NCBI GenBank assembly: GCA_011958945.1
Contig: BLLT01000011.1
Span: 1-38,648 of the forward strand
Source: Lachnospiraceae bacterium
Lineage (GTDB): Bacteria > Bacillota > Clostridia > Lachnospirales > Lachnospiraceae
Length of the DNA stretch: 38,648 nt
Direction of reading: 5' to 3'
The first letter of the stretch is position 1. The number at the start of each line of letters is the position of its first letter. Below, piece by piece: positions 14,980 to 33,195 of the stretch. The translations under genes and the position numbers were made by a program. Under the pieces are notes generated by a model that worked only from the letters and a program-made list of their open reading frames with translations, searched no databases and was not told where the DNA came from.

Positions 14980-15094
14980 ATTTTACCCCATTTCTGCGCT
15001 GCTTTTGTGGCCCGGCATTACCGGGGCTTTATGCATCTTAAGTTTGTGGATGCAGCGCAGACACAAACCCTGGATTGAAAACTTCGGTTTTCAA
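14980..15094 (-). repeat. Structured 5'-UTR repeat, copy A (upstream of blaI-like gene)
   Basis: Read on the minus strand: a TTGAAAAC/GTTTTCAA hairpin (about 15075-15094), then P1 strand GGGTTTGTG (15070-15062), P2 strand CTGCGCTGC (15060-15052), P1' CACAAACTT (15048-15040), a CCCGG-type hairpin, P2' GCAGCGCAG (15002-14994), then AAATGGGGTAAA leading to the start codon. P1 and P2 interleave, giving either a pseudoknot or two alternative folds. P2' lies just before the Shine-Dalgarno. Related copies lie upstream of four other genes. Confidence 0.75.
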
Positions 15095-15172
15095 TTTTTG
15101 ATTTTAGTGTTTTGGACCTTTGACCTTCAGCTGATTTGTGTTAACATCAATTTATTGTCTTATTTTGTTTAG

Positions 15173-15201
15173 ATTTTATCATATTTATATCATTGTGTAA
15201 A
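15173..15201 (-). promoter_or_regulatory. Sigma-A promoter for the blaI-like gene
   Basis: On the minus strand, TTTACA (15201-15196), 17 nt, TAAAAT (15178-15173). This gives a 5' UTR of roughly 190 nt that includes the structured repeat copy A. Confidence 0.6.
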
Positions 15202-15284
15202 TATTTTATTGCATCACATGAATATTTTTTCTTGAAAATATTAGGTAAAAATAGAACAAATATACGTTGTGAAGAAGCAGGATG

Positions 15285-15309
15285 AAAAAAGCCGGAAATA
15301 TTATCCGGC
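15285..15309 (-). terminator. Rho-independent terminator after the LacI remnant
   Basis: On the minus strand GCCGG-N9-CCGGC is followed at once by TTTTTT. It sits just beyond the stop of the LacI-type gene fragment, so it is the original terminator of that gene. Confidence 0.75.
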
Positions 15310-15350
15310 ACTGTAATCCATCTCCCTTCCATAGTTCTGCAAAAGACTTC

Positions 15351-15780
15351 TCACGCTTTTCCTTCCGGGCTCCCTTCCAGGGTGGTGCCTCCATAGGCAT
15401 ATGGGACAGGGAGGCAAACCAGCGGAGGTTTGGCGGATATGTTTTCCCGCAGGAGAAGGTCCACGCACATTTCGGCCATTTCAGGTACGGGCTGCACGAT
15501 GGTGGAACAAGTGTAGTCTTTGTACCCAAAATGTCTTGTGCCGTCGAATCCGATGATTTGTACATCTTCCGGAACTTTTTGGTTTAGTTTATGCAGCGTT
15601 TTTATAATAGAATATGCGAGGCTGTCCGTAACGCAGAATATTCCGTCAAAGGACAGCCGCCCGCCGTGGATGTGTTCAGCCAGGAACTTTTCGAATTCCG
15701 AATACGGGTCGCCATCGCTTATGATTTTCATTTCATAGGAAAGGCCGCGGGACAGGCAGCCGTTTTCAAACACTCCATTC
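15351..15780 (-). pseudogene. C-terminal half of a LacI-family repressor
   Basis: Minus-strand residues read GLSYEMKIISDGDPYSEFEK, then FDGIFCVTDSLAYSIIKTL, VPEDVQIIGFDG and the typical end TIVQPVPEMAEMCVDLLL. These match the periplasmic-binding-like effector domain of LacI/GalR regulators. The helix-turn-helix and first half are absent. At about 15780 the sequence becomes a solute-binding-protein gene on the opposite strand, so two genes were joined by a deletion or inversion. The upstream continuation of this frame is an artefact. Confidence 0.75.
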
Positions 15781-16825
15781 CTCAGTTTTCTATGATTAAT
15801 AAGGCATGGCTGGATGATTTGGGGCTTGAAGTGCCCACCACTCTGGATGAACTGCATACGGCACTGAAGGCCTTTAAGGATAACGATATGAGCGCAAAAT
15901 ATTATGGGAATTCCCCGGGAAGCACCATTCCTATGAGCACGGGGTTTGATGAATGGTGTTGGGGTCAGAATATTTTTTATGCGGGCTTTGGCTTTACCAA
16001 CTGGCCCAATGACGTGTGCAAGGATTTGGTTTTGCGGGATGACAAAACGGTGGATTTCGTATGCATATCCGATGAATACTGGGAGGCGGTGACTTACTTC
16101 CATGATTGGTATGAGGAGGGGCTGATGGATGCGGAAATGTTCAGCCAGTCCGATACACAGCTTATTTCCAAATGTTCCCAGGGCTATGTGGGGGTATCCA
16201 CATGGTGGTATATTGAAGAGTTAATGGGGGATTATGCAAAAGATTATGTATTCCTGCCGGTTCTGGACGGGTCGGATGGTACGCATAATGTGACCATACG
16301 GACCGGCGGCGGAATCAACAGCGGAAACCTGAACATTACAAAGGCATGCAAGAGCCCGGCCAATCTGCTTAAGTTTTTTGACATGTGGTATGATCCCGAA
16401 AATGTGATGCAGCTGCAGTACGGGGCGATTGGGGTATATTTTACCGATCAGGATGAAAATGTGGTGTGGATGAGTATTTCCGATGAGGAGAGCCGTGAAA
16501 AGTACGGGAAAAGTTCTGGCGAATTGAAGACCGTGCCATTGAACGTCTGACGGATTTGTATGAATTCTGGATGCCTTATGTGGACAGCACGACGGTCTAT
16601 CCGGTGGACTGCGTATTCACCAGCAGGGAATTGGATGATATTGACTGGTATAAGGCGAATTTCGAAAGCGCCGTAGCAGAGCAGGAAGGCCTGTGGATAA
16701 GGGATGGCGGGCCAACGGATGAAGAGTGGGAGAATTATATTCAATATTTAAGGGATAAATGTGGTATGGATAAGCTGCTGGCGGTATATCAGGCGGCTTA
16801 TGACAGATATACAGGGGCTGAGTAA
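15781..16825 (+). pseudogene. Extracellular sugar-binding protein (ABC family 1), truncated and frameshifted
   Basis: From about 15781 (FSMINKAWLDDLGLEVPTTL) the plus strand encodes the body of a lipoprotein sugar-binding protein: YFHDWYEEGLMDAEMFSQ, TGGGINSGNLNITKACKSP, FFDMWYDPENVMQLQYG. The signal peptide, lipobox and first roughly 150 residues are missing. A frameshift near 16505 (in TACGGGAAAAG) moves the reading to a frame giving FWRIEDRAIERLTDLYEFWM and on to the stop at 16825. The gene is therefore dead. It probably served the same sugar ABC transporter whose permease remnant lies at 11654. Confidence 0.75.
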
Positions 16826-16903
16826 ACGGTTTTGTTTAGGGGGTTGCATTTGCCCTAAAGTTATGAAATAATTTTAGGCAGGGAAGAATCCAATCCGGAC
16901 TGC

Positions 16904-16933
16904 TTGCCTTATGAAATTAAGAAATGTTACAAT
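16904..16933 (+). promoter_or_regulatory. Possible promoter for the GH32 gene
   Basis: TTGCCT (16904-16909), 18 nt, TACAAT (16928-16933), about 120 nt before the start codon. It is a moderate match only. Confidence 0.4.
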
Positions 16934-17053
16934 TAAATAAATTATTTTTAACTCGCTGCTCCTTCCTGCGGAATAAATCGGAAGACAGAGGATGGGGCTG
17001 TGTAATGGGTAAACCACGAAAAATATGAATCGAAGAAAGGTATGGGAATAGCT

Positions 17054-18553
17054 ATGACGAGCCAGATTTTACGGGATGCGCGGAAATATGAAATGGAGAT
17101 GGAAAGGAAAATAGCAGGTGAGCACAGGCCGGTATTTCATTTATCCTCCCGTGTGGGGTGGATGAATGACCCTAATGGATTTTCTTTTTATAAGGGGGAA
17201 TACCATATGTTCTATCAGTATCACCCTTATAGCCCCTTCTGGGGCCCCATGCACTGGGGGCATGCTGTGAGCAGGGACTTGCTGCATTGGGAGCATTTGC
17301 CGGCAGCCCTGGCGCCGGATATGGAGTATGACAGGGATGGGTGTTTTTCGGGCAGCGCCGTGGTGCTTCCGGACGGAAGGCATCTGCTTATGTATACAGG
17401 AGTCTCCAAGGAAGTGCAGCCGGATGGCAGTACGAAAGAGGTACAGACACAGTGCCTTGCTGTCGGGGATGGGATGGACTACGAAAAATATGTGGGGAAT
17501 CCGGTGTTGGATAAAGCTGCCCTTCCCGAGGGCGGAAGCAAATATGATTTCCGGGACCCTAAGCTTTGGAGAAAGCAGGATGGTTCTTATTTGTGTGTGA
17601 CAGGGAATTGCACGGCAGCCCATGACGGGCAGATTCTCCTTTACAGCAGCCCGGATGGCTTCCGGTGGAAATATGAGAAAATTCTGGCGGCCAATCATGA
17701 GCGGTTCGGAAAAATGTGGGAATGCCCAGACTTCTTTGCCTTGGACGGGAAACAGGTTTTGATTACAAGCCCCCAGGATATGGTGCCTCAGGGATTTGAA
17801 TACCATAACGGGAACGGTACGCTTTGCCTGATTGGTTCTTATGACGAAGCATCGAATACTTTTGTGGAAGAAAGCAATCAGTCTATTGACTACGGCATAG
17901 ATTTTTATGCGCCCCAGACAGTGCTCGCCCCGGATGGGCGGCGGATTATGATTGGATGGATGCAGAATTGGGATACCTGTAACCTGCATGCCCCAGAGAT
18001 AAGGTCATGGTTTGGCCAGATGAGCCTGCCCAGGGAACTTTCCGTCCAAAACGGCAGACTGTTCCAGCGGCCGGTCAGGGAACTGGAAGCTATGCGGGGG
18101 CAGGAAGTGAAATATGAAAACGTTGCTTTTACGGATATTATAAAACTAAAAGGCATACAGGGCCGTAAAATTGATATGGAACTCACCATACGCCCGGAGG
18201 ATGAGCAAAATGTATACCGTAAATTTGCGGTACGATTTGCCCAGGATGACAAATATCAGACTTCTGTCAGCTTCCGCCCTTACGAATCCATAATAAAAGT
18301 GGACAGAAAGCATTCAGGCTCCAGACGGGCGATTATCCACCAACGCCGCTGCCTGGTAAGGGATGACAACGGAAGTGGAAACGGAAGGATTAAAATCAGG
18401 ATTATCTTGGATAATTACAGCGCGGAGGTCTTTGTCAATGACGGGGAATATGTGCTTTCGGCTACCTTTTATACGGACCCCTCTGCGGATGGCATATCTT
18501 TCTTTGCGGACGGCAGGGTAGTTATGGATGTGGTGAAGTATGAGTTGGCGTAG
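17054..18553 (+). CDS. GH32 sucrose-6-phosphate hydrolase / beta-fructofuranosidase
   Basis: This 499-residue cytoplasmic enzyme (no signal peptide) hydrolyses beta-fructosides such as sucrose, sucrose-6-phosphate or short fructans. The three GH32 active-site motifs are present: WMNDPNG (nucleophile Asp39), FRDP (Asp168) and WECPDFF (acid/base Glu223). The C-terminal beta-sandwich ends SADGISFFADGRVVMDVVKY. The ATG at 17054 (MTSQILRDARKYE) fits the family better than 17042, which lies 1 nt after AAAGG. It is the only apparently intact enzyme in a locus of broken sugar genes, so uptake must come from elsewhere. No PTS gene is adjacent. Confidence 0.88.
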   Translation: MTSQILRDARKYEMEMERKIAGEHRPVFHLSSRVGWMNDPNGFSFYKGEYHMFYQYHPYSPFWGPMHWGHAVSRDLLHWEHLPAALAPDMEYDRDGCFSGSAVVLPDGRHLLMYTGVSKEVQPDGSTKEVQTQCLAVGDGMDYEKYVGNPVLDKAALPEGGSKYDFRDPKLWRKQDGSYLCVTGNCTAAHDGQILLYSSPDGFRWKYEKILAANHERFGKMWECPDFFALDGKQVLITSPQDMVPQGFEYHNGNGTLCLIGSYDEASNTFVEESNQSIDYGIDFYAPQTVLAPDGRRIMIGWMQNWDTCNLHAPEIRSWFGQMSLPRELSVQNGRLFQRPVRELEAMRGQEVKYENVAFTDIIKLKGIQGRKIDMELTIRPEDEQNVYRKFAVRFAQDDKYQTSVSFRPYESIIKVDRKHSGSRRAIIHQRRCLVRDDNGSGNGRIKIRIILDNYSAEVFVNDGEYVLSATFYTDPSADGISFFADGRVVMDVVKYELA

Positions 18554-18657
18554 GTGGAAGATAGGAGGTACAGGAATCAATTTTCATGGGTAGTGTGGCG
18601 GGCAGGAAATTATCTGTATTTTGTATGGAAAATTGTTTGGGGAAATATAAGTTTTGG

Positions 18658-18681
18658 AGTTGGCCGTTTGGCCAACTTTTT
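18658..18681 (+). terminator. Rho-independent terminator after GH32
   Basis: AGTTGGCC-GTTT-GGCCAACT is a perfect 8-bp stem with a tetraloop and TTTTT. A near-identical hairpin core occurs at 24474-24498. Confidence 0.8.
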
Positions 18682-18687
18682 CCTGTC

Positions 18688-18716
18688 TTTACAAATTTCC
18701 ATTTTTATCGTATACT
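18688..18716 (+). promoter_or_regulatory. Promoter of the por operon
   Basis: TTTACA (18688-18693), 17 nt, TATACT (18711-18716) is a strong sigma-A match. It starts just after the GH32 terminator and leaves a 5' UTR of about 95 nt before porC. No structured leader was recognised there. Confidence 0.7.
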
Positions 18717-18817
18717 ATTCAAGATTGTTCTTGCAATACGGACAAATGTATTTGCATAAAAGACTGGAAGAAAATGTTAGAACGTATAAAAAATTACTTG
18801 CGGAATGGAGGAAGCAA

Positions 18818-19390
18818 ATGGAAGCACTGACAGAAATACGCTGGCATGGCAGGGGAGGCCAGGGGGCGAAGACAGCGGCTCTTTTGTTGGCGGAAGCGGC
18901 ATTTAATATAGGAAAGCATGTACAGGGATTTCCGGAATACGGACCGGAAAGGATGGGTGCGCCCATTACCGCCTATGACCGGATTAGCGATGGTGAAATC
19001 CGTGTACATTCCAATATATACGAACCGGATTATGTGGCGGTAGTTGACGATACTCTTTTACATACGGTGGACGTAACAAAAGGTTTGAAAACAACCGGCG
19101 GAATTTTAATCAACACCCAGAAGGAAAAGCAGGAAATCCTCCCGTTGCTCAATGGATATCAGGGGAAAATATATCTTCTGAACGCTTATCATGTGTGCAT
19201 GGAAACGATGGGCCAATATTTCCCCAACACCCCTATGCTGGCGGCATTAGTGAAGATTTCCGGCGTCATCGGCACGGATGTTTTTTTAGGGGAAATGGAA
19301 AAATCGCTGGCGCATAAATTCGCAAAAAAACCGGAAGTGCTGGCCGGGAATATGGCAGCGCTGAAACTGGCTTTGACGGAGGTGGGGTAA
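18818..19390 (+). CDS. porC: 2-oxoacid:ferredoxin oxidoreductase gamma subunit
   Basis: The gamma subunit of the four-subunit enzyme that oxidatively decarboxylates pyruvate or another 2-oxoacid to acyl-CoA, reducing ferredoxin. The 190-residue product has the family start EIRWHGRGGQGAKTAALLLA and FPEYGPERMGAPITAYDRI. The start at 18818 follows GGAGG at 7 nt; the open frame runs further upstream but through the promoter region. The stop overlaps the porD start by one base. Confidence 0.9.
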   Translation: MEALTEIRWHGRGGQGAKTAALLLAEAAFNIGKHVQGFPEYGPERMGAPITAYDRISDGEIRVHSNIYEPDYVAVVDDTLLHTVDVTKGLKTTGGILINTQKEKQEILPLLNGYQGKIYLLNAYHVCMETMGQYFPNTPMLAALVKISGVIGTDVFLGEMEKSLAHKFAKKPEVLAGNMAALKLALTEVG

Positions 19391-19692
19391 TGGAGTTGAA
19401 AGCAGCACAGATAAATGAGGAAACAAAATGGCAGGATTTGACGGAAGGGCTGAAAATTTTCGAGCCGGCCACCTCACGCCTGTTTGAGACGGGGGAATGG
19501 CGGACGCAGACGCCGGTATGGGAGGAAGAAAAGTGTAAACAATGTCTGCTCTGTGTACCCTATTGCCCGGACAGCTGTATTCCGGTAGAGAATAAAAAAA
19601 GAGACGGCTTTGATTTAGTGCATTGCAAAGGCTGCGGAATCTGCGAAAAAGCATGCCCTTTCGGGGCGATTTCGATGAAGGAGGGAAAATAG
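19390..19692 (+). CDS. porD: 2-oxoacid:ferredoxin oxidoreductase delta subunit (2x[4Fe-4S])
   Basis: A 100-residue ferredoxin-type subunit with two [4Fe-4S] motifs: CKQCLLCVPYCP and CKGCGICEKACP. It relays electrons from the catalytic subunits to ferredoxin. It is translationally coupled to porC (TAATG) and followed at once by porA, whose Shine-Dalgarno GGAGGG lies in its last codons. Confidence 0.92.
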   Translation: MELKAAQINEETKWQDLTEGLKIFEPATSRLFETGEWRTQTPVWEEEKCKQCLLCVPYCPDSCIPVENKKRDGFDLVHCKGCGICEKACPFGAISMKEGK

Positions 19693-20874
19693 ATGGCAAT
19701 CAGAACCAGTATGTCAGGAAACGAAGCGACTGCATATGCGGTGCGCCAGATTAACCCGGATGTTATGCCGGCGTTCCCAATTACTCCTTCTACGGAAATC
19801 CCCCAGTTTGTATCCAATATGATAGCAAACGGGGAAATTGATACGGAATTTATCCCGGTGGAGAGCGAACACAGCTCTATGAGCGCGGCCATCGGGGCCA
19901 GCGCGGCCGGAGCCAGGACTCTGACGGCCACATCATCGGCGGGGCTTGCCCTGATGTGGGAAGTGGTATATGTGGCGGCCTCCAGCCGTCTGCCAATCGT
20001 AATGGCGGTGGTGAACAGGGGTCTGACAGGGCCTTTGAACATCAATGCGGAGCATTCCGACAGCATGGGGGCAAGGGATTCGGGCTGGATACAGATTTAT
20101 GCGGAAAACAATCAGGAAGCTTATGATAATATGCTGCAGGCGTACCGGATTGCGGAGCATCGGGATGTGCATCTTCCCGTTATGATATGCCAGGATGGAT
20201 TTATAACCAGCCATGCGGTGGAGAACATCAGCCTGCTGGAAGATGAACCGGTGAAAAAATTCGTGGGTGAATATTGTCCGGAGCATTATCTGTTAAATGA
20301 AAAGGAAGCGATGGCCGTAGGGCCTTATGCGGTTTCCAATTATTGTATGGAAGCAAAGAAGGCACAGGCGGAAGCGATGATACGTTCAAAGAAGGTTATC
20401 CTGGATGTGGCGGAGGAATTCGCGGCTATGTCGGGAAGGAACTATGGATTTTATGAGGCATACCGGATGGAGGATGCGGAATATGCGGCGGTAGCCATTG
20501 GCTCCGTGTCAGGAACGGCCAAAGATGCGGTGGACAGGCTAAGGGAAAAAGGGGTGAAAGCCGGATTTGTGAAGGTCCGGGTATTCCGTCCTTTTCCGGG
20601 GGAGGAACTGGCAAAGGAGTTACGGGGCTGTAAGGCGGTTGCTGTTATGGACCGGTGCGAAAGTTACAGTACGCAGGGAGGGCCTTTAGGGGCAGAACTG
20701 ATGGCGGCTATGTACCAGGCGAAAGTGACGGCGGAAGCAGTGAATGTTGTTTATGGGCTTTCAGGCCGAGATGTTCGGGTGGAAGATATGGAAAAAGTGT
20801 ATGGGGATTTGCGGGAAATGGCAAAAGAAGGGAAGATATTTGAACAGTATCCGTATCTTGGGCTGCGTGAGTAA
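19693..20874 (+). CDS. porA: 2-oxoacid:ferredoxin oxidoreductase alpha subunit
   Basis: This 393-residue subunit carries the pyrimidine-binding and domain-II parts of the enzyme. The family start (SGNEATAYAVRQINPDVMPA), FPITPSTEIPQ, and FIPVESEHSSMSAAIGASAA are clear, the last being a cofactor/substrate contact segment. The length is normal. Order gamma-delta-alpha-beta is typical of POR/VOR operons in anaerobes; substrate choice (pyruvate or branched-chain 2-oxoacid) cannot be settled from sequence. Confidence 0.92.
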   Translation: MAIRTSMSGNEATAYAVRQINPDVMPAFPITPSTEIPQFVSNMIANGEIDTEFIPVESEHSSMSAAIGASAAGARTLTATSSAGLALMWEVVYVAASSRLPIVMAVVNRGLTGPLNINAEHSDSMGARDSGWIQIYAENNQEAYDNMLQAYRIAEHRDVHLPVMICQDGFITSHAVENISLLEDEPVKKFVGEYCPEHYLLNEKEAMAVGPYAVSNYCMEAKKAQAEAMIRSKKVILDVAEEFAAMSGRNYGFYEAYRMEDAEYAAVAIGSVSGTAKDAVDRLREKGVKAGFVKVRVFRPFPGEELAKELRGCKAVAVMDRCESYSTQGGPLGAELMAAMYQAKVTAEAVNVVYGLSGRDVRVEDMEKVYGDLREMAKEGKIFEQYPYLGLRE

Positions 20875-20995
20875 GCAACAGTGTTGGGCTGTAAAGCGGC
20901 AGGCTGGGGGAAGATTCTGACAATATGTTTTGCCGGAATATTCAGCAAGTTTGTTGGTTTTGCATGTATCTGGCAGGAGAATGGGCGAAAGGAGC

Positions 20996-21958
20996 ATGGT
21001 TAACATAGAGATGGATGTGAAATTTGATTTTAAGGAGATACAGGAAAGGGAAGAGCGGTTGGCGCCTGGGCATCGAATGTGTGCCGGGTGCGGCGGCACG
21101 ATAGCAGTGAGGAATGTATTGAAGGCGCTGCATCCCGGGGATAGGGCAGTGGTAGGGAATGCTACGGGATGCCTGGAGGTGTCTACCTATATGTATCCTT
21201 ACACGGCTTATGAAGACAGTTATATCCACAGCGCCTTTGAGAACGCGGGGGCTACCCTTTCAGGGGTGGAGGCGGCGTATAATGCGCTGAAGAAGAGGGG
21301 GAAAATAAAAGAGGAATATAAGTTCATTACTTTTGGCGGAGATGGGGGGACTTATGATATCGGGCTGCAGTCTCTATCCGGCGCTATGGAGCGGGGGCAC
21401 GATATGGTGTATGTCTGCTATGACAATGGAGCCTATATGAATACCGGTACCCAGCGCTCTTCGGCCACGCCTTCTTTTGCGGATACTACCACAACGCCTG
21501 CGGGGAAAAAGTCGGCCGGGAAGCCCCAGGCCAGGAAGGATTTGGCGGCGGTTATGGCGGCCCATAATATCCCGTACGTGGGGCAGACGACTTTTATTGG
21601 GAATATGAAAGACTTGTATGTGAAATCGGAGAAGGCGATTTATACTCCGGGAGCCGCTTTCCTCAATGTCTTGGCGCCCTGCCCAAGGGGATGGCGGTAT
21701 GATGCCCCGGAACTGATGAATATCTGCAAATCGGCGGTGGAAACCTGTTATTGGCCGCTGTTTGAAGTGGTGGATGGTAAATGGATTCTGAATTATGAGC
21801 CGAAGAAGAAGCTTCCGATTGAAGACTTTTTGAAAAGGCAGGGACGGTTCAAGCACTTGTTTAAGCCGGAAAATCAGGATTATATCGGTGTGTTTCAGGC
21901 AGAAGTGGACAGGAGATGGGAAGAGTTGAGAAAGAGGTGCGAATCTTATGGCGGCTAA
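20996..21958 (+). CDS. porB: 2-oxoacid:ferredoxin oxidoreductase beta subunit (TPP-binding)
   Basis: The beta subunit binds thiamine diphosphate: GDGGTYDIGLQ and, 30 residues on, CYDNGAYMNTGTQRS form the TPP/Mg motif, and the N-terminal CAGCGG plus a later conserved Cys belong to its cluster-linked segment. The start is uncertain. GGAG at 20991 is one base from ATG 20996 and 16 from ATG 21011, both unusual spacings. A 121-nt gap separates it from porA without a terminator. The stop overlaps the next small gene by 11 nt. Confidence 0.9.
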   Translation: MVNIEMDVKFDFKEIQEREERLAPGHRMCAGCGGTIAVRNVLKALHPGDRAVVGNATGCLEVSTYMYPYTAYEDSYIHSAFENAGATLSGVEAAYNALKKRGKIKEEYKFITFGGDGGTYDIGLQSLSGAMERGHDMVYVCYDNGAYMNTGTQRSSATPSFADTTTTPAGKKSAGKPQARKDLAAVMAAHNIPYVGQTTFIGNMKDLYVKSEKAIYTPGAAFLNVLAPCPRGWRYDAPELMNICKSAVETCYWPLFEVVDGKWILNYEPKKKLPIEDFLKRQGRFKHLFKPENQDYIGVFQAEVDRRWEELRKRCESYGG

Positions 21959-22142: not shown

Positions 22143-22181
22143 AATAAGGAACTGCCTGATGGTGGAAGAGTGAGAGGGGAA

Positions 22182-25516: not shown

Positions 25517-25560
25517 AATATAAAGCCAGCAGCTTCAAAAAACAAAAAGAGGTTTAAATT

Positions 25561-25587
25561 TGAAAACGCGCAGAAATGGGAATAAAA
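25561..25587 (+). repeat. 3'-end fragment of the structured 5'-UTR repeat before marR
   Basis: TGAAAACGCGCAGAAATGGG matches the last part (P2' plus Shine-Dalgarno segment GCGCAGAAATGGGG) of the repeat found at 14980, 29291, 31626 and 33111. The 5' arms are missing here. Its presence directly before a start codon repeats the pattern of the full copies. Confidence 0.55.
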
Positions 25588-26049: not shown

Positions 26050-26069
26050 TAAAGAAATGGAGGATTATA

Positions 26070-27440
26070 ATGACAAAAAGCAGTAGAAGAGAGCAAATGG
26101 AAAAATATACAGCCAAATATGGTGATGTGTGTAAGCAAAATAATCATATAGAAACCAATTTGTATGAAGAATATGGTGTAAAAAGGGGGCTCAGGGATAA
26201 AAACGGGGAAGGGGTATTGGCAGGGCTTACCAATATTTCTGTTATAAAATCCCAGGAGATTGTGGATGGGAAAAGGGTTCCCTGCGAAGGCAGGCTGCTA
26301 TACCGGGGATATGATATCATTGATTTGGTCAGTGGATTTGAACATAGCGCCAGATTTGGCTTTGAGGAAATTACATATCTTTTGTTGTTTGGTGATTTGC
26401 CGGACAAGGCCCATCTGAAAGAATTCAAGGGGATGCTGGCGATGCTGCGGACGCTTCCCACCAATTTTACGCGGGATGTAATTATGAAGGCATCCAGTAA
26501 GGACATTATGAGTTCCCTGACGAGGAGCGTGCTGACCCTGGCTTCCTATGATAAGCAGGCGGCGGATTTAAGCATTCCCAATGTCCTGCGGCAATGTATG
26601 ATGTTGATTAGTGTGTTCCCCATGCTTTCCGTATACGGCTATCAGGCCTATAACCATTATGAAAGGGATGACAGCCTTTATATTCACAGGCCCGATGCCA
26701 GCCTGTCCACGGCGGAAAATATCCTTCGCCTGCTGCGCCCGGATATGAAATATTCGGAACTGGAGGCAAAGGTATTGGATATTGCCCTGGTGCTGCATAT
26801 GGAGCATGGCGGCGGAAATAACTCCACTTTTACCACCCGTGTAGTCACTTCTTCCGGATCGGATACTTATTCGGTTATCGCGGCGGCGCTGTCTTCCCTG
26901 AAAGGGCCGAAACACGGCGGTGCGAATATCAAAGTAGTGGAAATGATGGCGAACATTAAAAAGAATGTGAAAGACGTCAATGACGAGGACAAAGTAAAAG
27001 ATTACCTTGCCCGGATGCTAAATAAAGAAGTATTCGATAAAAGCGGCTTGATTTATGGGATGGGGCATGCGGTGTATTCCATTTCGGATCCAAGGGCCAC
27101 TATTTTCAAGAGCTTTGTGGAAAGGCTGGCGTTGGACAAAGGACGTAAGGAGGATTTTAAGCTATATTCGATGATTGAGCGCCTTGCTCCCCAGGTGATA
27201 GCGGAAAAGCGGAATATTTATAAAGGCGTAAGTGCGAATGTGGATTTTTACAGTGGTTTTGTATACAGCATGTTGGATATACCGTTAGAACTTTATACTC
27301 CCATTTTTGCCATGGCCAGGATTGTGGGCTGGAGCGCACATCGCTTGGAGGAATTGATTAACGCGGACAAAATTATCCGCCCTGCCTATAAGAGCGTGAT
27401 GATGGAGCGGGAATACAATGATATAGAGAAAAGGAAATGA
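26070..27440 (+). CDS. gltA: Citrate synthase
   Basis: A 456-residue citrate synthase (acetyl-CoA + oxaloacetate to citrate). Catalytic regions are visible: HMEHGGGNNSTFTTR (first His), KGPKHGGAN, GMGHAVYSISDPRA (second His), and ANVDFYSGFVY (Asp), with the arginine-containing end segment. The start follows GGAGG. It is somewhat longer than the 370-430 of most bacterial enzymes because of an N-terminal extension of about 45 residues. Operon with marR suggests regulated glutamate/citrate branch synthesis. Confidence 0.9.
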   Translation: MTKSSRREQMEKYTAKYGDVCKQNNHIETNLYEEYGVKRGLRDKNGEGVLAGLTNISVIKSQEIVDGKRVPCEGRLLYRGYDIIDLVSGFEHSARFGFEEITYLLLFGDLPDKAHLKEFKGMLAMLRTLPTNFTRDVIMKASSKDIMSSLTRSVLTLASYDKQAADLSIPNVLRQCMMLISVFPMLSVYGYQAYNHYERDDSLYIHRPDASLSTAENILRLLRPDMKYSELEAKVLDIALVLHMEHGGGNNSTFTTRVVTSSGSDTYSVIAAALSSLKGPKHGGANIKVVEMMANIKKNVKDVNDEDKVKDYLARMLNKEVFDKSGLIYGMGHAVYSISDPRATIFKSFVERLALDKGRKEDFKLYSMIERLAPQVIAEKRNIYKGVSANVDFYSGFVYSMLDIPLELYTPIFAMARIVGWSAHRLEELINADKIIRPAYKSVMMEREYNDIEKRK

Positions 27441-27498
27441 GGTAAAATTCGAAACAGACGGATTCCATAACAGTGAAGCTGAAAGGCTGAACTGTTAC

Positions 27499-27679
27499 GA
27501 ATTTCGCTTCTGCAAAGCAGAGGAGAAATTGCTCCGCGAGAAGGGGTACTGGAAGAGAACTTGCGGAACTGGAAAACAGCAAGAGAACAGCCAGTGCCAC
27601 GGAGAATTTCGCGTCTGCGAAGCAGAGGAGAAATTGCTCCGCGAGAAGGGGCACTGGAAGAGAACTTGCGGAACTGGAA
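27499..27679 (+). repeat. Two 76-bp direct repeats upstream of the DUF1538 gene
   Basis: Copies at 27499-27574 and 27604-27679 differ at only a few positions. Each runs from GAATTTCGC to GCGGAACTGGAA and contains AGCAGAGGAGAAATTG. Blocks AACTGGAAAACAGCA and TGCGGAACTGGAATAG are shared with the hflK-hflC spacer (13567-13614). An inverted TAACAGT/ACTGTTA pair lies just before copy 1. Confidence 0.85.
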
Positions 27680-27698
27680 TAGAAAGGCGGGAGAGGAA

Positions 27699-29243
27699 TT
27701 GAGGTTATACAGAACGAAGCTGCAGGAAAAATTGAATGAAGCGCTAAAAGCAGTGATTCCTATTATCGGCATTGTTCTCGTGCTTTGCTTTACAATTGCT
27801 CCTATATCCCCTAGCATACTGATGGCATTTTTGCTAGGGGCGGTGCTTTTGGTGGCGGGGATGATGTTTTTTACTCTGGGTGTGGAACTTTCTATGACGC
27901 CAATGGGTGAAAGGGTGGGAACTTGTATGACCCAATCGAGGAAGCTGTCGGTAATTATTTTACTGAGTTTTATCCTGGGGCTTGTAATTACCATATCGGA
28001 ACCGGATTTACAGGTTTTGGCAGAGCAGGTGCCATCCATACCGAACCTTGTTCTTATTTTTGCGGTGGCCTTCGGAGTCGGGGTCTTTCTGGTAGTAGCG
28101 GTACTGCGTATGCTTTTTGGAATTCCTTTATCGTATATGCTTCTCTTTTTTTATGGGATTGCCATCGTGCTCGCTTTTTTGGTTTCCAAAGACTTTCTGG
28201 CTGTGGCCTTCGATGCGGGGGGCGTGACCACAGGCCCTATGACGGTTCCTTTTATCATCGCCCTTGGCGTTGGTATTGCGGCCATCCGAAACGATAAGCA
28301 TGCTTCGGATGACAGTTTCGGTTTGGTATCGCTTTGTTCCATCGGCCCTATTCTGTCCGTACTTGTGCTGGGTCTGATTTACCATCCGGAAGGGGCATCC
28401 TATGTTCCCAAACAGATTCCGGATATCAATAGTTCCGTGGAATTATGGGGGATGTTTGCCGAAGGGTTTCCGGAATATATGTGGGAAATGGCGGTTTCCC
28501 TTTTCCCGATTCTGGCTTTTTTCGGTATTTTTCAACTGATTTTTAAGGGGATACAGAAACGTACTTTGATTAAAATAGGAATCGGCCTGGTTTATACTTA
28601 CATAGGACTGTTCCTTTTCCTGACAGGGGTAAATGTGGGATTTATGCCAGCCGGTAATTATCTGGGGCAGGTGATTGCGTCCAACGCATTCCGGTGGATT
28701 ATTGTTCCCGTCGGTATGCTTATCGGCTATTTTATCGTGTTGGCTGAGCCCGCAGTATATGTGTTAACGAAACAGGTAGAGGAGATTACTTCCGGTGCGG
28801 TGTCGGCAAAGTCCATGAGCATGAGCCTTTCTATCAGTGTGTCCATATCCTTAGGGCTGGCTATGATACGGGTGCTGACGGGAATTTCCATTATGTGGTT
28901 CATCATTCCAGGGTATGGGATTGCCCTTATTCTGTCCTTTATCGTGCCGAAAATATTTACGGCGATTGCTTTTGACTCCGGCGGTGTGGCCTCCGGGCCA
29001 ATGACAGCGACCTTTCTTCTGCCTTTTGCCATGGGGGCATGCAATAGTGTGGGCGGAAATATTGTAACGGATGCCTTTGGCGTGGTTGCCATGGTCGCTA
29101 TGACCCCGTTAATTACCATACAGATATTGGGGCTTGTGTATCGGATACGCTCGGCCAAAGCTGTTCCCGCATTACAGCCTGCAGTGGTGGGTTTTCAGGA
29201 AGCATTTGATTTGCTTGGGGATGACGATATTATAGAGTTGTAG
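27699..29243 (+). CDS. DUF1538-family integral membrane protein
   Basis: A membrane protein of about 514 residues with some 12-14 hydrophobic helices and an internal duplication: FDAGGVTTGPMT (about 172) and FDSGGVASGPMT (about 426) mark equivalent positions of two repeats, as in DUF1538 proteins. Such inverted or direct repeats with Gly-rich discontinuous segments suggest a transporter or channel. The family often sits beside P-II genes, as here. The start is uncertain: TTG 27699 after GGGAGAGGA is proposed; the frame extends upstream through the 76-bp repeats, which argues against an earlier start. Confidence 0.8.
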   Translation: MRLYRTKLQEKLNEALKAVIPIIGIVLVLCFTIAPISPSILMAFLLGAVLLVAGMMFFTLGVELSMTPMGERVGTCMTQSRKLSVIILLSFILGLVITISEPDLQVLAEQVPSIPNLVLIFAVAFGVGVFLVVAVLRMLFGIPLSYMLLFFYGIAIVLAFLVSKDFLAVAFDAGGVTTGPMTVPFIIALGVGIAAIRNDKHASDDSFGLVSLCSIGPILSVLVLGLIYHPEGASYVPKQIPDINSSVELWGMFAEGFPEYMWEMAVSLFPILAFFGIFQLIFKGIQKRTLIKIGIGLVYTYIGLFLFLTGVNVGFMPAGNYLGQVIASNAFRWIIVPVGMLIGYFIVLAEPAVYVLTKQVEEITSGAVSAKSMSMSLSISVSISLGLAMIRVLTGISIMWFIIPGYGIALILSFIVPKIFTAIAFDSGGVASGPMTATFLLPFAMGACNSVGGNIVTDAFGVVAMVAMTPLITIQILGLVYRIRSAKAVPALQPAVVGFQEAFDLLGDDDIIEL

Positions 29244-29270
29244 AAACTGAACTGGGTTATGCGCTGAAAT

Positions 29271-29428
29271 GCCGCGCAGAAATGAGGGCGGGATTGAAAA
29301 TTTACAATCCTAAGTTTGTGTCTGCGCTGTATCCACAAGCTTGACATGCGTAAAGTTCCGTCAATGCCGGGCCGCAAAAGCCGCGCAGAAATGGGGTAAA
29401 GATTGAAAATTGAAAATTTTCAATCTGG
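29271..29428 (+). repeat. Structured 5'-UTR repeat, copy B with flanking partial units
   Basis: Order: a partial 3' end (GCCGCGCAGAAATGAGGG, 29271-29288), then a full unit: hairpin GGATTG...CAATCC (29291-29310), P1 AAGTTTGTG (29312-29320), P2 CTGCGC (29322-29327), P1' CACAAGCTT (29334-29342), P2' GCGCAG (29383-29388), AAATGGGGTAAA; then another 5' hairpin (GATTGAAAATT/ATTTTCAATC) and a stem GGAGA-TTAGTGC to about 29471. The units look tandemly inserted. They fill the gap between the DUF1538 and P-II genes. Confidence 0.75.
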
Positions 29429-29499
29429 AGATTAGTGCTGCGCAAGTTTGCGTTTCGCACTAAAGTCTCCGGGCTTTGGAAAGGAGCATGGTTATAAAG

Positions 29500-30195
29500 A
29501 TGAGTAAAGTATATATGATGATAACAATCACAAATAGGAGTATCGGTTCCAAAATGCTGTCGTTTTATAAAGAAAATGATTTGTCAGTTATTTTAAGCAC
29601 TTTGGGGGCAGGAACAGCAAACAGCGATGTGCTGGACTATTTCGGGCTGGAAGCTACGGAAAAGGCGGTAATGGCTGCCGTAGTGACCAGGGAAATGTGG
29701 CGCCTCCTGAAGAAGGGGCTGCAGAAAAAAATGCATATCGATGTGCCGGGAACAGGAATTGCATTTATAATTCCGTTTTCCAGTATTGGGGGAAAGAAGG
29801 CTCTCCAGTTTCTGACGGATGGACAGAATTTTGAAAAAGAGGAGGAAACCGTGTTGAAGGAGACAGAATACGAATTAATCATAGTCATCTTGAATCAGGG
29901 GTACAGCAATATCGTTATGGATGCGGCCAGGGAAAAAGGGGCAGGAGGCGGTACGGTGATTCATGCCAAGGGAACCGGAATGGAAAAAGCGGAACAATTC
30001 CTGGGCGTGTCGATCGCCGCGGAGAAGGAAATGATATTTATTGTTACCAAATCAAAGGGGAAAAATGAAATTATGAAGGCAATCATGGAGCAGGCTGGAA
30101 TGAACAGCAAAGCCAAATCCATTGTCTTTTCCCTTCCGGTAACCAGTACGGCAGGCTTAAGGCTTCAGGAAGAGGAGCCTGCCGAAGAAATATAG
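29500..30195 (+). CDS. Tandem P-II-like regulatory protein
   Basis: P-II proteins sense ATP/ADP and 2-oxoglutarate and bind transporters. This 231-residue product seems to hold two P-II-like ferredoxin folds: an N-terminal one (YMMITITNRSIGSKMLSFY ... VPGTGIAFIIPF) and a C-terminal one with YSNIVMDAAREKGAGGGTVI HAKGTG resembling the P-II signature region. Ordinary P-II is about 112 residues. GGAG lies 13 nt before ATG 29500 and 1 nt before ATG 29488, so the start is uncertain. Its neighbour, the DUF1538 membrane protein, is the likely partner. Confidence 0.72.
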   Translation: MSKVYMMITITNRSIGSKMLSFYKENDLSVILSTLGAGTANSDVLDYFGLEATEKAVMAAVVTREMWRLLKKGLQKKMHIDVPGTGIAFIIPFSSIGGKKALQFLTDGQNFEKEEETVLKETEYELIIVILNQGYSNIVMDAAREKGAGGGTVIHAKGTGMEKAEQFLGVSIAAEKEMIFIVTKSKGKNEIMKAIMEQAGMNSKAKSIVFSLPVTSTAGLRLQEEEPAEEI

Positions 30196-30217
30196 ACAGG
30201 CTGGCATGGAAATATGG

Positions 30218-31378
30218 TCAGAAAGGGCCTGGAGGGGAGATATAAAAAGTGTCGGCCAGGAGAAGCCAGTTCGCCCGGAACAGGTTCATAATCTGCCAGT
30301 ATCCGGCGCCTCGTAACCGGTAATCCTGAATCAGGGAAAATTTTTCCTTTAGGCTGCGTACGTCTTCAAACCAGACTTCGTGCTGTATGCCGTCCTGTTC
30401 GTAGGTGAAGTGGGGCGACATGGATACCTGGTCGAATTCAATGACGGCATTATGCGCAATGGCGATTTCTATGGCTTGGGTATTGCTGATGGTACGGGCG
30501 GCTGTTTTGCCTCTTTCATAAGGAAGGGGCCAGTCATAACCGTAATTGGGAATCCCCAGATTTATTTTTTCTGCGGGGATACGGGTAAGGGCATATTCCA
30601 CTACTTCCCGCACCTTGTGAATAGGGGCGACGGCCATTGGCGGCCCATAAGTATATCCCCACTCGTAGGTCATAAGCAGCACGTGGTTGGCGGCTTCGCC
30701 CAGAAGCCGGTAGTCCTTTCCGCCATAGAGAAGCCCTGGCTGGTCATCGGAGGTTTTGGGTGCAAGAGCCACGGATACAGGATAACCGGCCTTATTGGCG
30801 GCAATGCGTACTCTTTCTACAAACTGGGAAAAAGCTATTTTGTCTTCGGCCAGAATATACTCAAAATCAATATCTATTCCCCCATAATTTTTCCCGGACA
30901 TAGTTCCCAGCAAGTTATCAATTAGGTTTTCCTGTATAGAAGGACTATTGACAAGAACATTAATTAAATAATTACTGAACTGACCGTCTTTTCCAAAAGG
31001 CGTTAGGGTAAGGATAGGGCGTGTATTGTTCATAAGGGCAAGTTCAATCATCCATGTATCGTCCAGGGATGGCGGGATTAATTCCCCTTCCGTGGTAAAA
31101 CCATAGGAAAAAACAAATAAATCTGTAAGATAAGGGAGAGTTTCTGTAAGCGTGAAACGCCGGATAAAGGGATAGGCATAGCCGCCGGACATCACAGTTC
31201 TTTTTTCCGCATCATTGTTCCCGTTATTTGCATTTACTGTAAGCAGCAGCGCCTGCCCTATTGCCAGCCGGTAGGGATAGGATAGCTGGTTATTGTAAAT
31301 AATGGAATCTGTACCAATATCATAATAAGAGGCAATGGAGTCAATGGTATCTCCTGGTTGAACCACATATATTATCAT
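30218..31378 (-). CDS. LysM plus GH18 protein (spore cortex/peptidoglycan hydrolase-like)
   Basis: A 386-residue protein: an N-terminal LysM (YVVQPGDTIDSIASYYDIG, about 3-47) followed by a GH18 domain with the catalytic YGGIDIDFEY (DxxDxDxE). The set-up is that of SleL/YaaH-type N-acetylglucosaminidases used on spore cortex. The start ATG 31378 has AAAGGAG at suitable spacing; the upstream ATG has none. No signal peptide is visible, as in spore-associated family members. It converges on the P-II gene with 22 nt between stops. Confidence 0.85.
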   Translation of the reverse strand: MIIYVVQPGDTIDSIASYYDIGTDSIIYNNQLSYPYRLAIGQALLLTVNANNGNNDAEKRTVMSGGYAYPFIRRFTLTETLPYLTDLFVFSYGFTTEGELIPPSLDDTWMIELALMNNTRPILTLTPFGKDGQFSNYLINVLVNSPSIQENLIDNLLGTMSGKNYGGIDIDFEYILAEDKIAFSQFVERVRIAANKAGYPVSVALAPKTSDDQPGLLYGGKDYRLLGEAANHVLLMTYEWGYTYGPPMAVAPIHKVREVVEYALTRIPAEKINLGIPNYGYDWPLPYERGKTAARTISNTQAIEIAIAHNAVIEFDQVSMSPHFTYEQDGIQHEVWFEDVRSLKEKFSLIQDYRLRGAGYWQIMNLFRANWLLLADTFYISPPGPF

Positions 31379-31514
31379 AGAATTTTCGCTCCTTTGCCTG
31401 ACATGCCGGAAAAGTTTGGGAATCAATCAAGGTATGGCCTGAATGATTGGAGATGGGGCGTGGGCAAAGATTACTGTTTTGTATATTATTGTATGCGGCA
31501 TCCTTGGCAATTGA

Positions 31515-31543
31515 TTGCATTTTATCCAATAATTTGCTATGAT
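31515..31543 (+). promoter_or_regulatory. Promoter of the UAP-type gene
   Basis: TTGCAT (31515-31520), 17 nt, TATGAT (31538-31543) with an extended -10 (TGC just before). The 5' UTR is about 145 nt and includes structured repeat copy D. Confidence 0.65.
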
Positions 31544-31625
31544 ACACATAGTATAGTTTTCGGATAAAAATATAAGGAACGGAAAGATTATGTGGGCGCA
31601 GCCTCTGCAAGCCGGATATGTCCCA

Positions 31626-31691
31626 AGGTTTTGTCTGCGCAGTATCCACAAACTTAACAGGCGCAAAAAGCTGCGCAGAAATGAGGTAAAG
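31626..31691 (+). repeat. Structured 5'-UTR repeat, copy D (short form)
   Basis: CTGCGCAG (31635-31642) pairs with CTGCGCAG (31671-31678); CACAAACTT lies between. The middle hairpin of copies A and B is absent. The unit ends AAATGAGGTAAAG, whose GAGG is the Shine-Dalgarno of the UAP-type gene 2-8 nt before its ATG. Confidence 0.75.
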
Positions 31692-31692
31692 A

Positions 31693-32916
31693 ATGAACTA
31701 CGAGGAAGCGTATGGAAAGCTGGAGAAATATGGCCAGCTGCATGTGCTGAAGTATTATGAGGAATTGCCGGAGGAAAAGAGGGAAGCGCTGCTTGGCCAG
31801 ATAGCAGAACTCGATTTTGAGGTGTTGAAATACTGTAAGGAAAATACCACCAATGAAAAGGGGAAAATCGCACCTCTGGCAGCCATGCAGATGCCGGAAA
31901 TTGAAAAGCACAAAGAGGAGTACACAGCGGCCGGAATCGAGGAGATACGTAAGGGAAGAATCGGCGCTGTTCTTCTGGCAGGAGGAATGGGAACCAGGCT
32001 GGGATCTGAGTGCCCTAAGGGAATGTTCGATATCGGGATGACAAAGCCGGTCTATATTTTCCAAAGAATCATAGAGAACATGCTGGATGTGGTGAGGCAG
32101 GCTGGGGCATGGGTACACTTATTCGTTATGACCAGCGACAAAAATCACGATACGACGGTAAAATTTTTTGAAGAAAAAGGTTATTTTGGCTATAGCAAAG
32201 ACTATGTAAGTTTTTTTGTTCAAGATGTGGTTCCGGCATCGGATTATGACGGAAAAGTGTATATGGAAGAAAAGTGGAAAATTTCCACTTCCCCTAATGG
32301 GAACGGCGGATGGTTTTCTTCTATGAGTAAATGCGGGCTTCTGGACATTGTGAGGGAAGGGGATATTGAATGGCTGAATGTATTTGCCGTAGACAATGTA
32401 TTACAGCGCATTGCAGACCCCTGCTTTATTGGAGCCACCTTGGTTAACGGATGTGTGGCGGGAGCAAAAGTAGTCAGGAAGAACAGCCCGGATGAGAGGG
32501 TGGGGGCTCTTTGCCTGGAAGACGGCAGGCCATCTATTGTAGAATATTATGAATTGACCAACGAAATGAAAGAGGCAAAAAATGCAGACGGAAGCCCCGC
32601 CTATGATTTTGGCGTAATACTCAATTATATTTTTAAGACACAGGAATTGGAAGATGTCATGGACAGGCAGCTGCCTCTTCATGTGGTGGAAAAACAGATT
32701 CCCTATATGGATGAAGAAGGAAATCATATAGAACCAGAAGCGCCAAACGGCTATAAATATGAAACCCTGGTGCTGGATATGATACATCAGGTGGATAACT
32801 GCCTTGCCTATGAAGTGGACAGGAACAGGGAATTTGCCCCTATCAAAAATGCTGCCGGAATTGATTCTGTAGAAACGGCCAGAGAACTATGCAGGATGAA
32901 CGGAATAGAACTTTGA
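31693..32916 (+). CDS. UDPGP/UAP1-type sugar-1-phosphate uridylyltransferase
   Basis: A 407-residue nucleotidyltransferase of the eukaryote-type UDPGP family (UDP-N-acetylhexosamine or UDP-glucose pyrophosphorylase). The signature LLAGGMGTRLG is at about 94-104; then CPKGMFDIG and FVMTSDKNHDTT, FVQDVVPA-like substrate loop, and NGNGGWFSSMSKCGLL. It makes UDP-sugars from UTP and a sugar-1-phosphate. GalE follows downstream, so the pair probably supplies UDP-GlcNAc/UDP-GalNAc or UDP-Glc/UDP-Gal for surface glycans or Leloir metabolism. Confidence 0.85.
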   Translation: MNYEEAYGKLEKYGQLHVLKYYEELPEEKREALLGQIAELDFEVLKYCKENTTNEKGKIAPLAAMQMPEIEKHKEEYTAAGIEEIRKGRIGAVLLAGGMGTRLGSECPKGMFDIGMTKPVYIFQRIIENMLDVVRQAGAWVHLFVMTSDKNHDTTVKFFEEKGYFGYSKDYVSFFVQDVVPASDYDGKVYMEEKWKISTSPNGNGGWFSSMSKCGLLDIVREGDIEWLNVFAVDNVLQRIADPCFIGATLVNGCVAGAKVVRKNSPDERVGALCLEDGRPSIVEYYELTNEMKEAKNADGSPAYDFGVILNYIFKTQELEDVMDRQLPLHVVEKQIPYMDEEGNHIEPEAPNGYKYETLVLDMIHQVDNCLAYEVDRNREFAPIKNAAGIDSVETARELCRMNGIEL

Positions 32917-33110
32917 GCCACGAGGAACAGCAGATAACATTTTGACAGCCATGTATAACATTATCGTATTGAAAAAAATAAGTATAGGAGTAGACTAAGG
33001 ATAGGTATGGAGCAGTTCAATTATCCTGTCTGGTACAGGCATCCGGACTGTTAAGAAATTTAAGTTTTACAAATGGATTGTTGATGCCGTCATAGGCGGC
33101 ATAAGGGGAA

Positions 33111-33195
33111 GATTGAAAATTCTCAATCCCGGGTTTGTGTCTGCGCGGCATTCACGAACCTGGCATGCACAAAAAGCCGCGCAGAAATGAGGAGA
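33111..33195 (+). repeat. Structured 5'-UTR repeat, copy E (before galE)
   Basis: Hairpin GATTGA...TCAATC (33111-33128), P1 GGGTTTGTG (33131-33139), P2 CTGCGCGGC (33141-33149), P1' CACGAACCT (33153-33161), P2' GCCGCGCAG (33176-33184), then AAATGAGGAG with the galE Shine-Dalgarno. Relative to copy A, P2 has changed a T-A to a G-C pair and P1 has G-C for G-U pairs, so pairing is kept. Confidence 0.75.

What the first reader, a model, noticed from the sequence alone, without database searches (positions are those of the whole stretch)
14980..33195. Dispersed 5'-UTR repeat family with covarying, interleaved stems and a built-in Shine-Dalgarno
Full or near-full copies lie directly before the blaI-like gene (14980-15094, minus), P-II (29291-29400), UAP (31626-31691) and galE (33111-33195); a 3' fragment precedes marR (25561). 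P2 varies but stays paired: CTGCGCTGC/GCAGCGCAG (A), CTGCGCGGC/GCCGCGCAG (E), CTGCGCAG/CTGCGCAG (D). P1 likewise: GGGTTTGTG/CACAAACTT (A), AAGTTTGTG/CACAAGCTT (B), GGGTTTGTG/CACGAACCT (E). The order P1-P2-P1'-P2' means a pseudoknot or a two-state switch, and P2' abuts the AAATGRGG that serves as ribosome binding site. It matches no riboswitch class I recognise. It may be a mobile element that delivers a regulated 5' UTR.
Basis: partly seen in the sequence, partly recalled or inferred. Interest (0 to 1): 0.85.

Follow-up and report, generated by a model that had tools for sequence, protein, structure and literature searches.

The report
Mobile RNA leader replacing ribosome-binding sites
Certain gut-type bacteria carry a short, knotted RNA leader that appears to move into the tiny gap between a gene's ribosome-binding site and its start codon, bringing its own replacement ribosome-binding site so that the gene can still be read.

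Summary
The genome (Lachnospiraceae-like) holds about 130 copies, fragments included, of a 69-92 nt leader, in part preceded by an A/T-rich hairpin (P0). No Rfam family reached its threshold at the element. In 211 of 260 copies an ATG opening a frame of at least 50 codons lies 0-3 nt after the element (shifted controls at most 5%). Copies stack, the apparently newest nearest the ATG. Sites differ between sister species and the genes are unrelated, so one regulon is unlikely. Best reading: a mobile leader that survives by rebuilding the translation start. The pseudoknot is under structural constraint; its role (insulation, presentation or regulation of the new SD) is unproven, and the mobilising enzyme was not found. 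Nearest known kind: mycobacterial MIRUs, which use a coupled ORF.

The parts
15073..15096 (-). P0 hairpin of the blaI copy (AATTGAAAACCGAAGTTTTCAATC)
   Evidence: sequence; P0 detection
15062..15070 (-). P1 5' arm, blaI copy
   Evidence: covariation
15052..15061 (-). P2 5' arm, blaI copy
   Evidence: covariation
15040..15048 (-). P1 3' arm, blaI copy
15011..15026 (-). optional inner hairpin P3, blaI copy
14993..15002 (-). P2 3' arm, blaI copy
14986..14989 (-). element-borne Shine-Dalgarno GGGG, blaI copy
   Evidence: SD tetramer counts
14587..14979 (-). blaI-like gene (Penicillinase_R) that follows the copy
29271..29287 (+). remnant (3' end) of an older-looking element upstream of P-II
   Evidence: (match 29267-29287)
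29292..29309 (+). P0 hairpin of the P-II-region copy
29311..29400 (+). P1/P2 pseudoknot with P3 and SD (P1 29312-29320 with 29334-29342; P2 29321-29330 with 29380-29389; SD 29393-29396)
29401..29500 (+). rep2: a P0 hairpin followed by a different hairpin body ending in GGAAAGGAGCATGGTTATAAAG, directly before the P-II ATG
29501..30195 (+). P-II gene from its probable ATG
31624..31692 (+). UAP leader copy without P3 (P1 31624-31633 with 31647-31656, with mismatches; P2 31634-31643 with 31670-31679; SD 31683-31686)
31693..32916 (+). UDPGP-family (UAP-like) gene
33111..33128 (+). P0 hairpin of the galE copy, preceded by AAGGGGA (probable native SD homologue)
33129..33198 (+). galE leader copy without P3 (P1 33131-33139 with 33153-33161; P2 33140-33149 with 33176-33185; SD 33189-33192)
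33199..34215 (+). galE from its probable ATG
25566..25580 (+). 3' remnant (CGCGCAGAAATGGG) at the start region of marR
   Evidence: short match, weakest part

Best explanation
It is a small mobile element that exists as the 5' leader of other genes' mRNAs. Shown: it consists of an A/T-rich hairpin (P0, missing in many copies), two interleaved helices P1 and P2 (an H-type pseudoknot topology, sometimes with an extra hairpin P3), and a Shine-Dalgarno placed about 6 nt before the start codon. Shown at the sites examined: it lies between the gene's original SD and its AUG; sister species have the same gene with plain SD and no element. Shown: copies stack in tandem under the same rule. Inferred: the newest copy is the one nearest the AUG. 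Inferred: insertion there would uncouple the original SD and silence the gene, and the element survives because its 3' end is a complete replacement start region. Inferred: the pseudoknot is kept, in RNA, because it folds the element away and presents its own SD regardless of the upstream sequence (an insulated start site), or because it tunes translation. P0 probably belongs to mobility rather than expression. Unknown: the enzyme that moves it and whether it moves as DNA or RNA.
For: Covariation: relatives' copies aligned with a model that knew P1 only; P2, not in that model, is 93.6% paired with two-sided changes in 7 of 10 pairs; P1 97.7%; 137 two-sided cells against 29.7, 0/500. Own copies: 82 cells against 30.4, 0/500. 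Remote copies chosen as examples have wholly different P1 or P2 arms that still pair. Position: 211 of 260. Empty sites: base-level alignments for four genes; over seven genes, 28 of 32 orthologous starts lack the element and 4 carry it; galE 2 of 13 and UAP 2 of 13 sister orthologues have it, two more UAP orthologues keep a 3' remnant. SD before P0: 37 of 60 copies against 9, 14 and 11 of 60 in control windows, Wilcoxon p 2.6e-7 to 3.4e-6. Turnover: none of 22 same-genus copies precedes an orthologue (60% identity or more) of a gene behind one of the 107 own copies with a called frame; 6 of 15 sister genomes have no match. Stacks.
Against: 23 of 60 P0-bearing copies have no clear SD before P0; the blaI copy is one by eye. 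Copies scored as lacking P0 show no SD enrichment (27 of 123 against 40, 26, 30). No target-site duplication was found, and neither the Y1 transposase nor the reverse transcriptase family tracks the element. Nested folding does not make the element's SD more open than shuffled leaders (104 of 198, p 0.11); the mean openness is 0.48 with the leader, 0.46 with a shuffled leader and 0.67 with no leader at all, so insulation is not supported by that crude test, which cannot see the pseudoknot. In the own genome the number of pairs with two-sided change (10) is reached by 70 of 500 shuffles. Part of the covariation could have arisen in the source copies and not after insertion.
Confidence: 0.72

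Rival explanations
1. A regulatory RNA (riboswitch or protein-binding leader) that spread by mobility: P1/P2 switch between states and open or close the adjacent SD in response to a general signal.
For: Conserved non-paired letters (AAAA before P2', AGAAA around its end), topology with SD just after the 3' strand of P2, strict spacing, covariation; by nested folding the SD is less open with the leader than without it (0.48 against 0.67), though a shuffled leader does the same (0.46).
Against: Genes are of every kind (ribosomal protein, tRNA synthetases, glycolysis, transport, sigma factor, by eye) and cross-genus orthologues with the element are few (4 pairs at 49.9-63% identity among 13 pairs found); no Rfam class; 6 of 15 sister species do without it.
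Confidence: 0.25
2. A DNA repeat whose structure matters only as single-stranded DNA during transposition (like IS200/IS605 or REP ends); the RNA has no role and the SD is a side product of target choice.
For: Mobility and hairpin P0 at the left end; constraint could act on source copies.
Against: P0 is missing in many copies while P1, P2 and SD persist (123 copies scored as lacking P0); own-genome copies also covary; SD tetramer GAGG/GGAG/GGGG in 183 of 198 copies; Y1 transposases do not track the element.
Confidence: 0.2
3. MIRU-like strategy: a short ORF starting in P0 behind the native SD is translated through the element and couples to the gene.
For: P0 puts a TTG or GTG near where the native ATG was; in 16 of 54 copies that frame ends within 15 nt of the element's end.
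Against: 25 of 54 end early and 13 run past; 6 further copies have no start codon there; P0 lengths shift the frame; many copies lack P0.
Confidence: 0.05
4. An old vertically inherited leader, lost at random in relatives.
For: galE and UAP copies are shared by own, G001 and G002; one further gene (L173) is filled in own, G001 and G002, with different P0 sequences.
Against: Native SD found beside P0 in filled sites and alone in empty sites; lineage-specific copies; stacks.
Confidence: 0.03

Closest known systems
MIRU, mycobacterial interspersed repetitive units (one passage read in PMC12548453)
   Same: Short dispersed repeat that appears mobile, inserts at start codons and likely spares expression of the gene.
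   Different: MIRU uses an internal ORF coupled to the gene at -4 nt spacing; here no conserved ORF, but a pseudoknot and a replacement SD; different phylum.
MITEs such as Correia elements (passages read in PMC10969869)
   Same: Small non-autonomous-looking repeats, many copies, often upstream of genes.
   Different: No target duplication detected, no terminal inverted repeats seen by eye (one hairpin, at the left end only), fixed orientation and fixed distance to ATG; Correia is described there as supplying promoters.
preQ1-II and similar translational pseudoknot riboswitches (recalled, no paper read)
   Same: H-type pseudoknot, optional hairpin in the long loop, SD beside the 3' strand.
   Different: No Rfam match at the element in the loci searched; more than 100 copies before unrelated genes.
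BOX/RUP repeats of pneumococcus (search listing only, PMC3049150) and bcr1 of Bacillus cereus (search listing; RNA-like features recalled)
   Same: Interspersed repeats, with RNA folding potential as I recall it.
   Different: Not known to me to sit at a fixed distance from start codons or to replace the SD.
REP elements and RAYT/IS200-type transposases
   Same: Hairpin repeats in many copies.
   Different: Y1_Tnp has no match in four sister genomes that have the element and matches in all six that lack it.

Membership tests
MIRU-like start-codon repeats | dispersed copies inserted at start codons, gene-oriented | tested here: met
   211 of 260 at +0..+3, other strand 2 of 237; empty sites
MIRU-like start-codon repeats | ORF inside the element coupled to the gene | tested here: not met
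   of 54 copies with a start codon in P0, 16 near, 25 early, 13 through
Classical MITE | target-site duplication | tested here: not met
   left/right similarity 4.98 against 4.92 +/- 0.08 shuffled, 63 of 300 as high
Classical MITE | terminal inverted repeats matching an autonomous IS | not tested
   by eye only a left-end hairpin P0; no search for a parent IS was made
IS200/RAYT-mobilised REP | Y1 transposase present where the repeat is found | tested here: not met
   G001, G003, G005, G012 have elements but no PF01797 match at E<=1e-6; G006, G007, G008, G010, G011, G014 have the reverse
Known riboswitch or other Rfam RNA | covariance-model match at the element | tested here: not met
   window and 20 loci at gathering: no match on the element; 6 loci at E<=5: two matches overlap an element, both far below their thresholds and on the other strand (AaHKsRNA69 28.7 of 43 bits in L075, U4 20.4 of 46 bits in L054)
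Structured cis-acting RNA | covarying helices in leaders next to start codons | tested here: met
   covariation; transcription itself not testable here
Riboswitch | ligand-dependent control | not testable with these tools
   needs probing and reporters

The most novel reading that the evidence does not exclude
A new kind of mobile element that homes to translation start sites: it inserts into the SD-AUG gap, possibly recognising the ribosome-bound or initiation-competent mRNA (RNA-level insertion) or the SD-AUG signature in DNA, and its body is an RNA machine (pseudoknot plus SD) that takes over initiation. At least two element types (P1/P2 pseudoknot and rep2 hairpin) seem to use the same strategy and can share P0.
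Probability: 0.35. Interest if true: 0.93.

Novelty: new variant of a known kind. Interest (0 to 1): 0.83.

Why it matters
It would be a genomic parasite or symbiont that has rewritten the translation start of a few percent of a bacterium's genes, including housekeeping ones, without evident breakage. It gives a natural library of over a hundred leaders to test how a pseudoknot next to a Shine-Dalgarno sets translation. It also makes a concrete question testable: how can an element find the few bases between SD and AUG? The 3' part is a candidate natural insulated ribosome-binding site.

Tried and rejected
Rfam matches to the element: none at threshold; at E<=5 two far-sub-threshold matches overlap an element on the other strand. 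Target-site duplication: none. Conserved upstream ORF: not supported. SD more open than in shuffled leaders by nested folding: no difference, and less open than with no leader. Y1 transposase and reverse transcriptase (no match in G005, G009, G012, which have elements, and matches in G008 and G011, which have none) as mobilisers: do not track. Other recombinases were not searched. Plasmids: no match. Phage collection: 13 records match, all faecal 'Bacteriophage sp.' scaffolds; the three of 13 fetched are marked UNVERIFIED and carry no annotation, and one precedes a dnaB-like frame by eye, so they may be bacterial contigs. Viral contigs with a 19-base pattern: 2 stretches, one full copy and one 3' piece. 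A promoter inside the element (TTGACA is common in it) was considered and not tested. Eight paper searches listed no paper that by title or start of abstract describes this element; only the listed top rows were seen, and the library lacks most subscription papers. PMC8040213 was seen in passages only, its supplements were closed, and it may contain the element as an unnamed candidate.

Dropped or partial data. nhmmer hits below 8 bits or not reaching the last 12 model positions were dropped before the counts. P0-bearing copies that follow another copy (12 of 72) were left out of the SD test; copies with an intermediate P0 score fall in neither class. L023 and the marR fragment were left out of A1. 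Searches took 100 loci each (the cap), not all that were held; three copies in A3 (L066, L067, L078) appear as two partial rows each. Of 13 prepared empty-site queries seven and the tail of an eighth were sent.
Full report
WHAT WAS CHECKED. Downstream genes by Pfam: Penicillinase_R (blaI-like), P-II, UDPGP, Epimerase (galE) and MarR-type. Two corrections follow from reading the sequence. The copy before P-II is separated from its ATG (29501) by another repeat. The galE start is probably 33199, since the mechanical ORF start at 33187 is the ATG inside AAATGAGG, in frame.

SIZE OF THE FAMILY. A covariance model of 31 own copies (A1/R1) finds 139 matches at E<=1 in the own genome, 133 of them at E<=0.01; 150 candidates were scored, and some matches are parts of copies. 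Many copies lie at contig ends. Of 60 relatives plus the own genome, 15 of 61 have a match at E<=0.01; among the 15 same-genus genomes nine have matches and six have none. With a model of the form without P3 (R2), 60 of 397 genomes of the family match at E<=1e-3, own included; 29 of 392 in the order (23 in the family, own included, and 6 outside it, one of these strong: G043, 1.3e-14); and 7 of 391 in the class, of which the four outside the family are weak (3.0e-5 to 6.2e-4). In some searches only 12 candidates per genome were scored and stricter filters were used. UAP orthologues in named genomes are mostly Lachnospiraceae; contigs of equal length suggest that G001 is strain 526-35 (71449 bases) and G002 the MAG JAETTM (76275 bases) (inference).

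ANATOMY. Core: P1 5' (about 10 nt, usually CAAGTTTGTG), P2 5' (TCTGCGCNGC) with no spacer, three nt, P1 3', a 10-15 nt A-rich stretch (in the own genome often enlarged by hairpin P3), P2 3' (GCNGCGCAGA), AATGRGG, about 6 nt, ATG. The bases AAAA before P2' and AGAAA around its end are among the most constant. In 72 of the full copies with enough upstream sequence a hairpin P0 (GATTGAAAATTGAAAATTTTCAATC, or in other lineages GAGTGAAAGAT..ATCTTTCACTC) ends just before P1, by a hairpin score of my own; 123 copies scored as lacking it.

COVARIATION. A2, 19 rows, mostly remote copies: 96.1% of cells paired, 25 two-sided cells against 6.8, 0/500. A3, 107 distinct rows from other genomes, aligned to a model containing P1 only: P1 97.7%, P2 93.6%, 17 of 20 pairs with two-sided changes, 137 cells against 29.7, 0/500, and slid controls at most 26 cells. 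P2 is therefore not favoured by the alignment; P1 is. A4, 113 distinct own rows, aligned to a model without P1: 82 cells against 30.4, 0/500, but the number of pairs with two-sided change (10) is reached by 70 of 500 shuffles. The smaller A1 gave weaker values (10 cells against 4.7, 5/500). Shuffles do not keep relatedness, so these are not probabilities; the slid controls do keep it. Remote copies picked as examples, with wholly different arms, pair fully. One P2 pair (U-A at column 19) is often broken (30 of 95).

POSITION. Of 266 unique copies, 260 have at least 30 nt downstream; in 211 an ATG opening a frame of at least 50 codons (or open to the end of the stretch) lies at +0..+3 from the projected model end. 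Seven shifted controls give 3 to 11 hits among 171-257 (at most 4.7%); the other strand 2 of 237. The spacing +2 alone holds for 78 of 134 own and 82 of 132 other copies. Of the exceptions several are inner members of tandems, copies before very short frames, or copies before non-ATG starts (listing).

INSERTION SITE. In P0-bearing copies that do not follow another copy, the 18 nt before P0 pair with the anti-SD far better than three windows further upstream: 37 of 60 at -5 kcal/mol or better against 9, 14 and 11; Wilcoxon p 2.6e-7, 1.1e-6, 3.4e-6; it holds for own (22 copies, p 0.0068, 0.00077, 0.034) and relatives (38 copies, p at most 1.6e-4) apart. The first, smaller test gave the same (39 copies). 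Against it: 23 of 60 lack the signal, and copies without P0 show none (27 of 123 against 40, 26, 30). Empty sites show the order of parts. For seven own genes with a P0-bearing copy, 32 orthologous starts in sister genomes were read. 28 have no element; in 27 of these the last 20 nt before the ATG reach -5 kcal/mol or better with the anti-SD. 4 carry a copy (L329, L330, L333, and a shortened one in L348); my script also flagged L345, which by eye is not an element and is counted among the 28. For four of these genes base-level alignment shows the native SD at the left border and the ATG at the right border, for example AGGAGGTATAGAC-AATGG empty against AGGAAAGTAAGA-[element]-AAAAATGG filled; the displaced SD seems to have begun to decay. 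galE: 2 of 13 sister orthologues have the element; UAP: 2 of 13 (one shortened), and two more keep only AGAAATGAGG. Among 24 named UAP loci the model finds it before UAP in L187 and L188 only; these appear to be the same genomes as G002 and G001, so this is not independent. No target-site duplication is visible.

STACKS. Tandem copies follow the same rule: the next element begins a few bases after the SD of the previous one. Before P-II three lie in a row: a 3' remnant, a full copy, then rep2 next to the ATG. Three copies (L020, L077, L151) sit between an SD of the rep2 type and the ATG. L306 joins P0 and P1 of this element to the tail of rep2.

TURNOVER AND GENES. Proteins after the copies with a called frame (107 own, 123 others) were compared all against all. 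Within the genus the only shared orthologues (60% identity or more) were galE and UAP, which I had fetched for that purpose; the other six pairs, at 26-33%, look like paralogues. None of 22 same-genus copies chosen only by score precedes an orthologue of an own copy's gene. Across genera 13 pairs were found, four of them at 49.9-63% identity. The genes range over ribosomal protein L13, isoleucyl- and tyrosyl-tRNA synthetase, pyruvate kinase, purF, DnaK, RNase III, argG, transport and regulators (names from N-terminal sequences by eye). This looks like insertion before any gene and not like a regulon; I did not compute the chance expectation.

MECHANISM. Shown: structure, place, replacement SD, presence and absence at orthologous starts. 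Inferred: an insertion between SD and AUG is tolerated because the element ends in a working start region; P1/P2 are kept for an RNA role. P0 is often missing while P1, P2 and SD remain, which suggests that P0 serves movement. A nested-fold estimate of SD openness was not different from shuffled leaders (104 of 198, p 0.11; means 0.48 and 0.46) and lower than with no leader (0.67); it ignores the pseudoknot and decides little, but it gives no support to insulation. The mobiliser is unknown: Y1 transposases and reverse transcriptases do not track the element.

COMPARISON. The nearest kind I could find in print is the MIRU, described in PMC12548453 (one passage read) as mobile and inserting at start codons with a coupled ORF. 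Here the coupled ORF is not conserved. Eight paper searches listed no description of this element among the rows shown; the library lacks most subscription papers and supplements were closed.

VERDICT. A real, large family without an Rfam match; a new variant of the start-codon-inserting repeat, with an RNA pseudoknot and replacement SD as its apparent means of being harmless. The regulated-leader reading remains open but is second.

Noticed in passing
window 29401-29500; L300-L314: rep2, a second start-codon-proximal repeat with a hairpin body and tail GGAAAGGRGCATGGTTATAAAG; 15 matches at E<=0.001 in the own genome; in 8 of 10 tails printed an ATG follows directly (frames not checked). In L300 (the window copy) and L310 it is joined to the same P0 hairpin.
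   Followed up: partly
L306: Chimera of P0 and P1 of the main element with the rep2 tail, still directly before an ATG.
   Followed up: no
window 27498-27680: Two 76-base repeats, 96% identical, before the DUF1538 gene; related stretches occur several times in G002.
   Followed up: no
window 29501-30195: The P-II protein is about 230 aa with the Pfam P-II match only in its second half; the first half also begins like a P-II domain by eye, so it may be a fused double P-II, beside DUF1538.
   Followed up: no
own genome contig ends (e.g. C129, C69, C264, C321, C355): Many contigs begin or end inside or beside a copy of the element, so the repeat probably breaks the assembly.
   Followed up: no
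L076 2383-2550 (-) and 2846-3011 (+): Two TwoAYGGAY RNAs (Rfam RF01731) near an mtnN-like gene (by eye) that carries the element.
   Followed up: no
G235, G281, G203 copies (L273, L280; L270, L278, L284; L239-L261): Each lineage has its own consensus of the element, which suggests separate amplifications (by eye).
   Followed up: partly
L173 gene in own, G001 (L329) and G002 (L330): All three genomes have an element before this gene, but with different P0 sequences: either independent insertions at one site or strong divergence.
   Followed up: no
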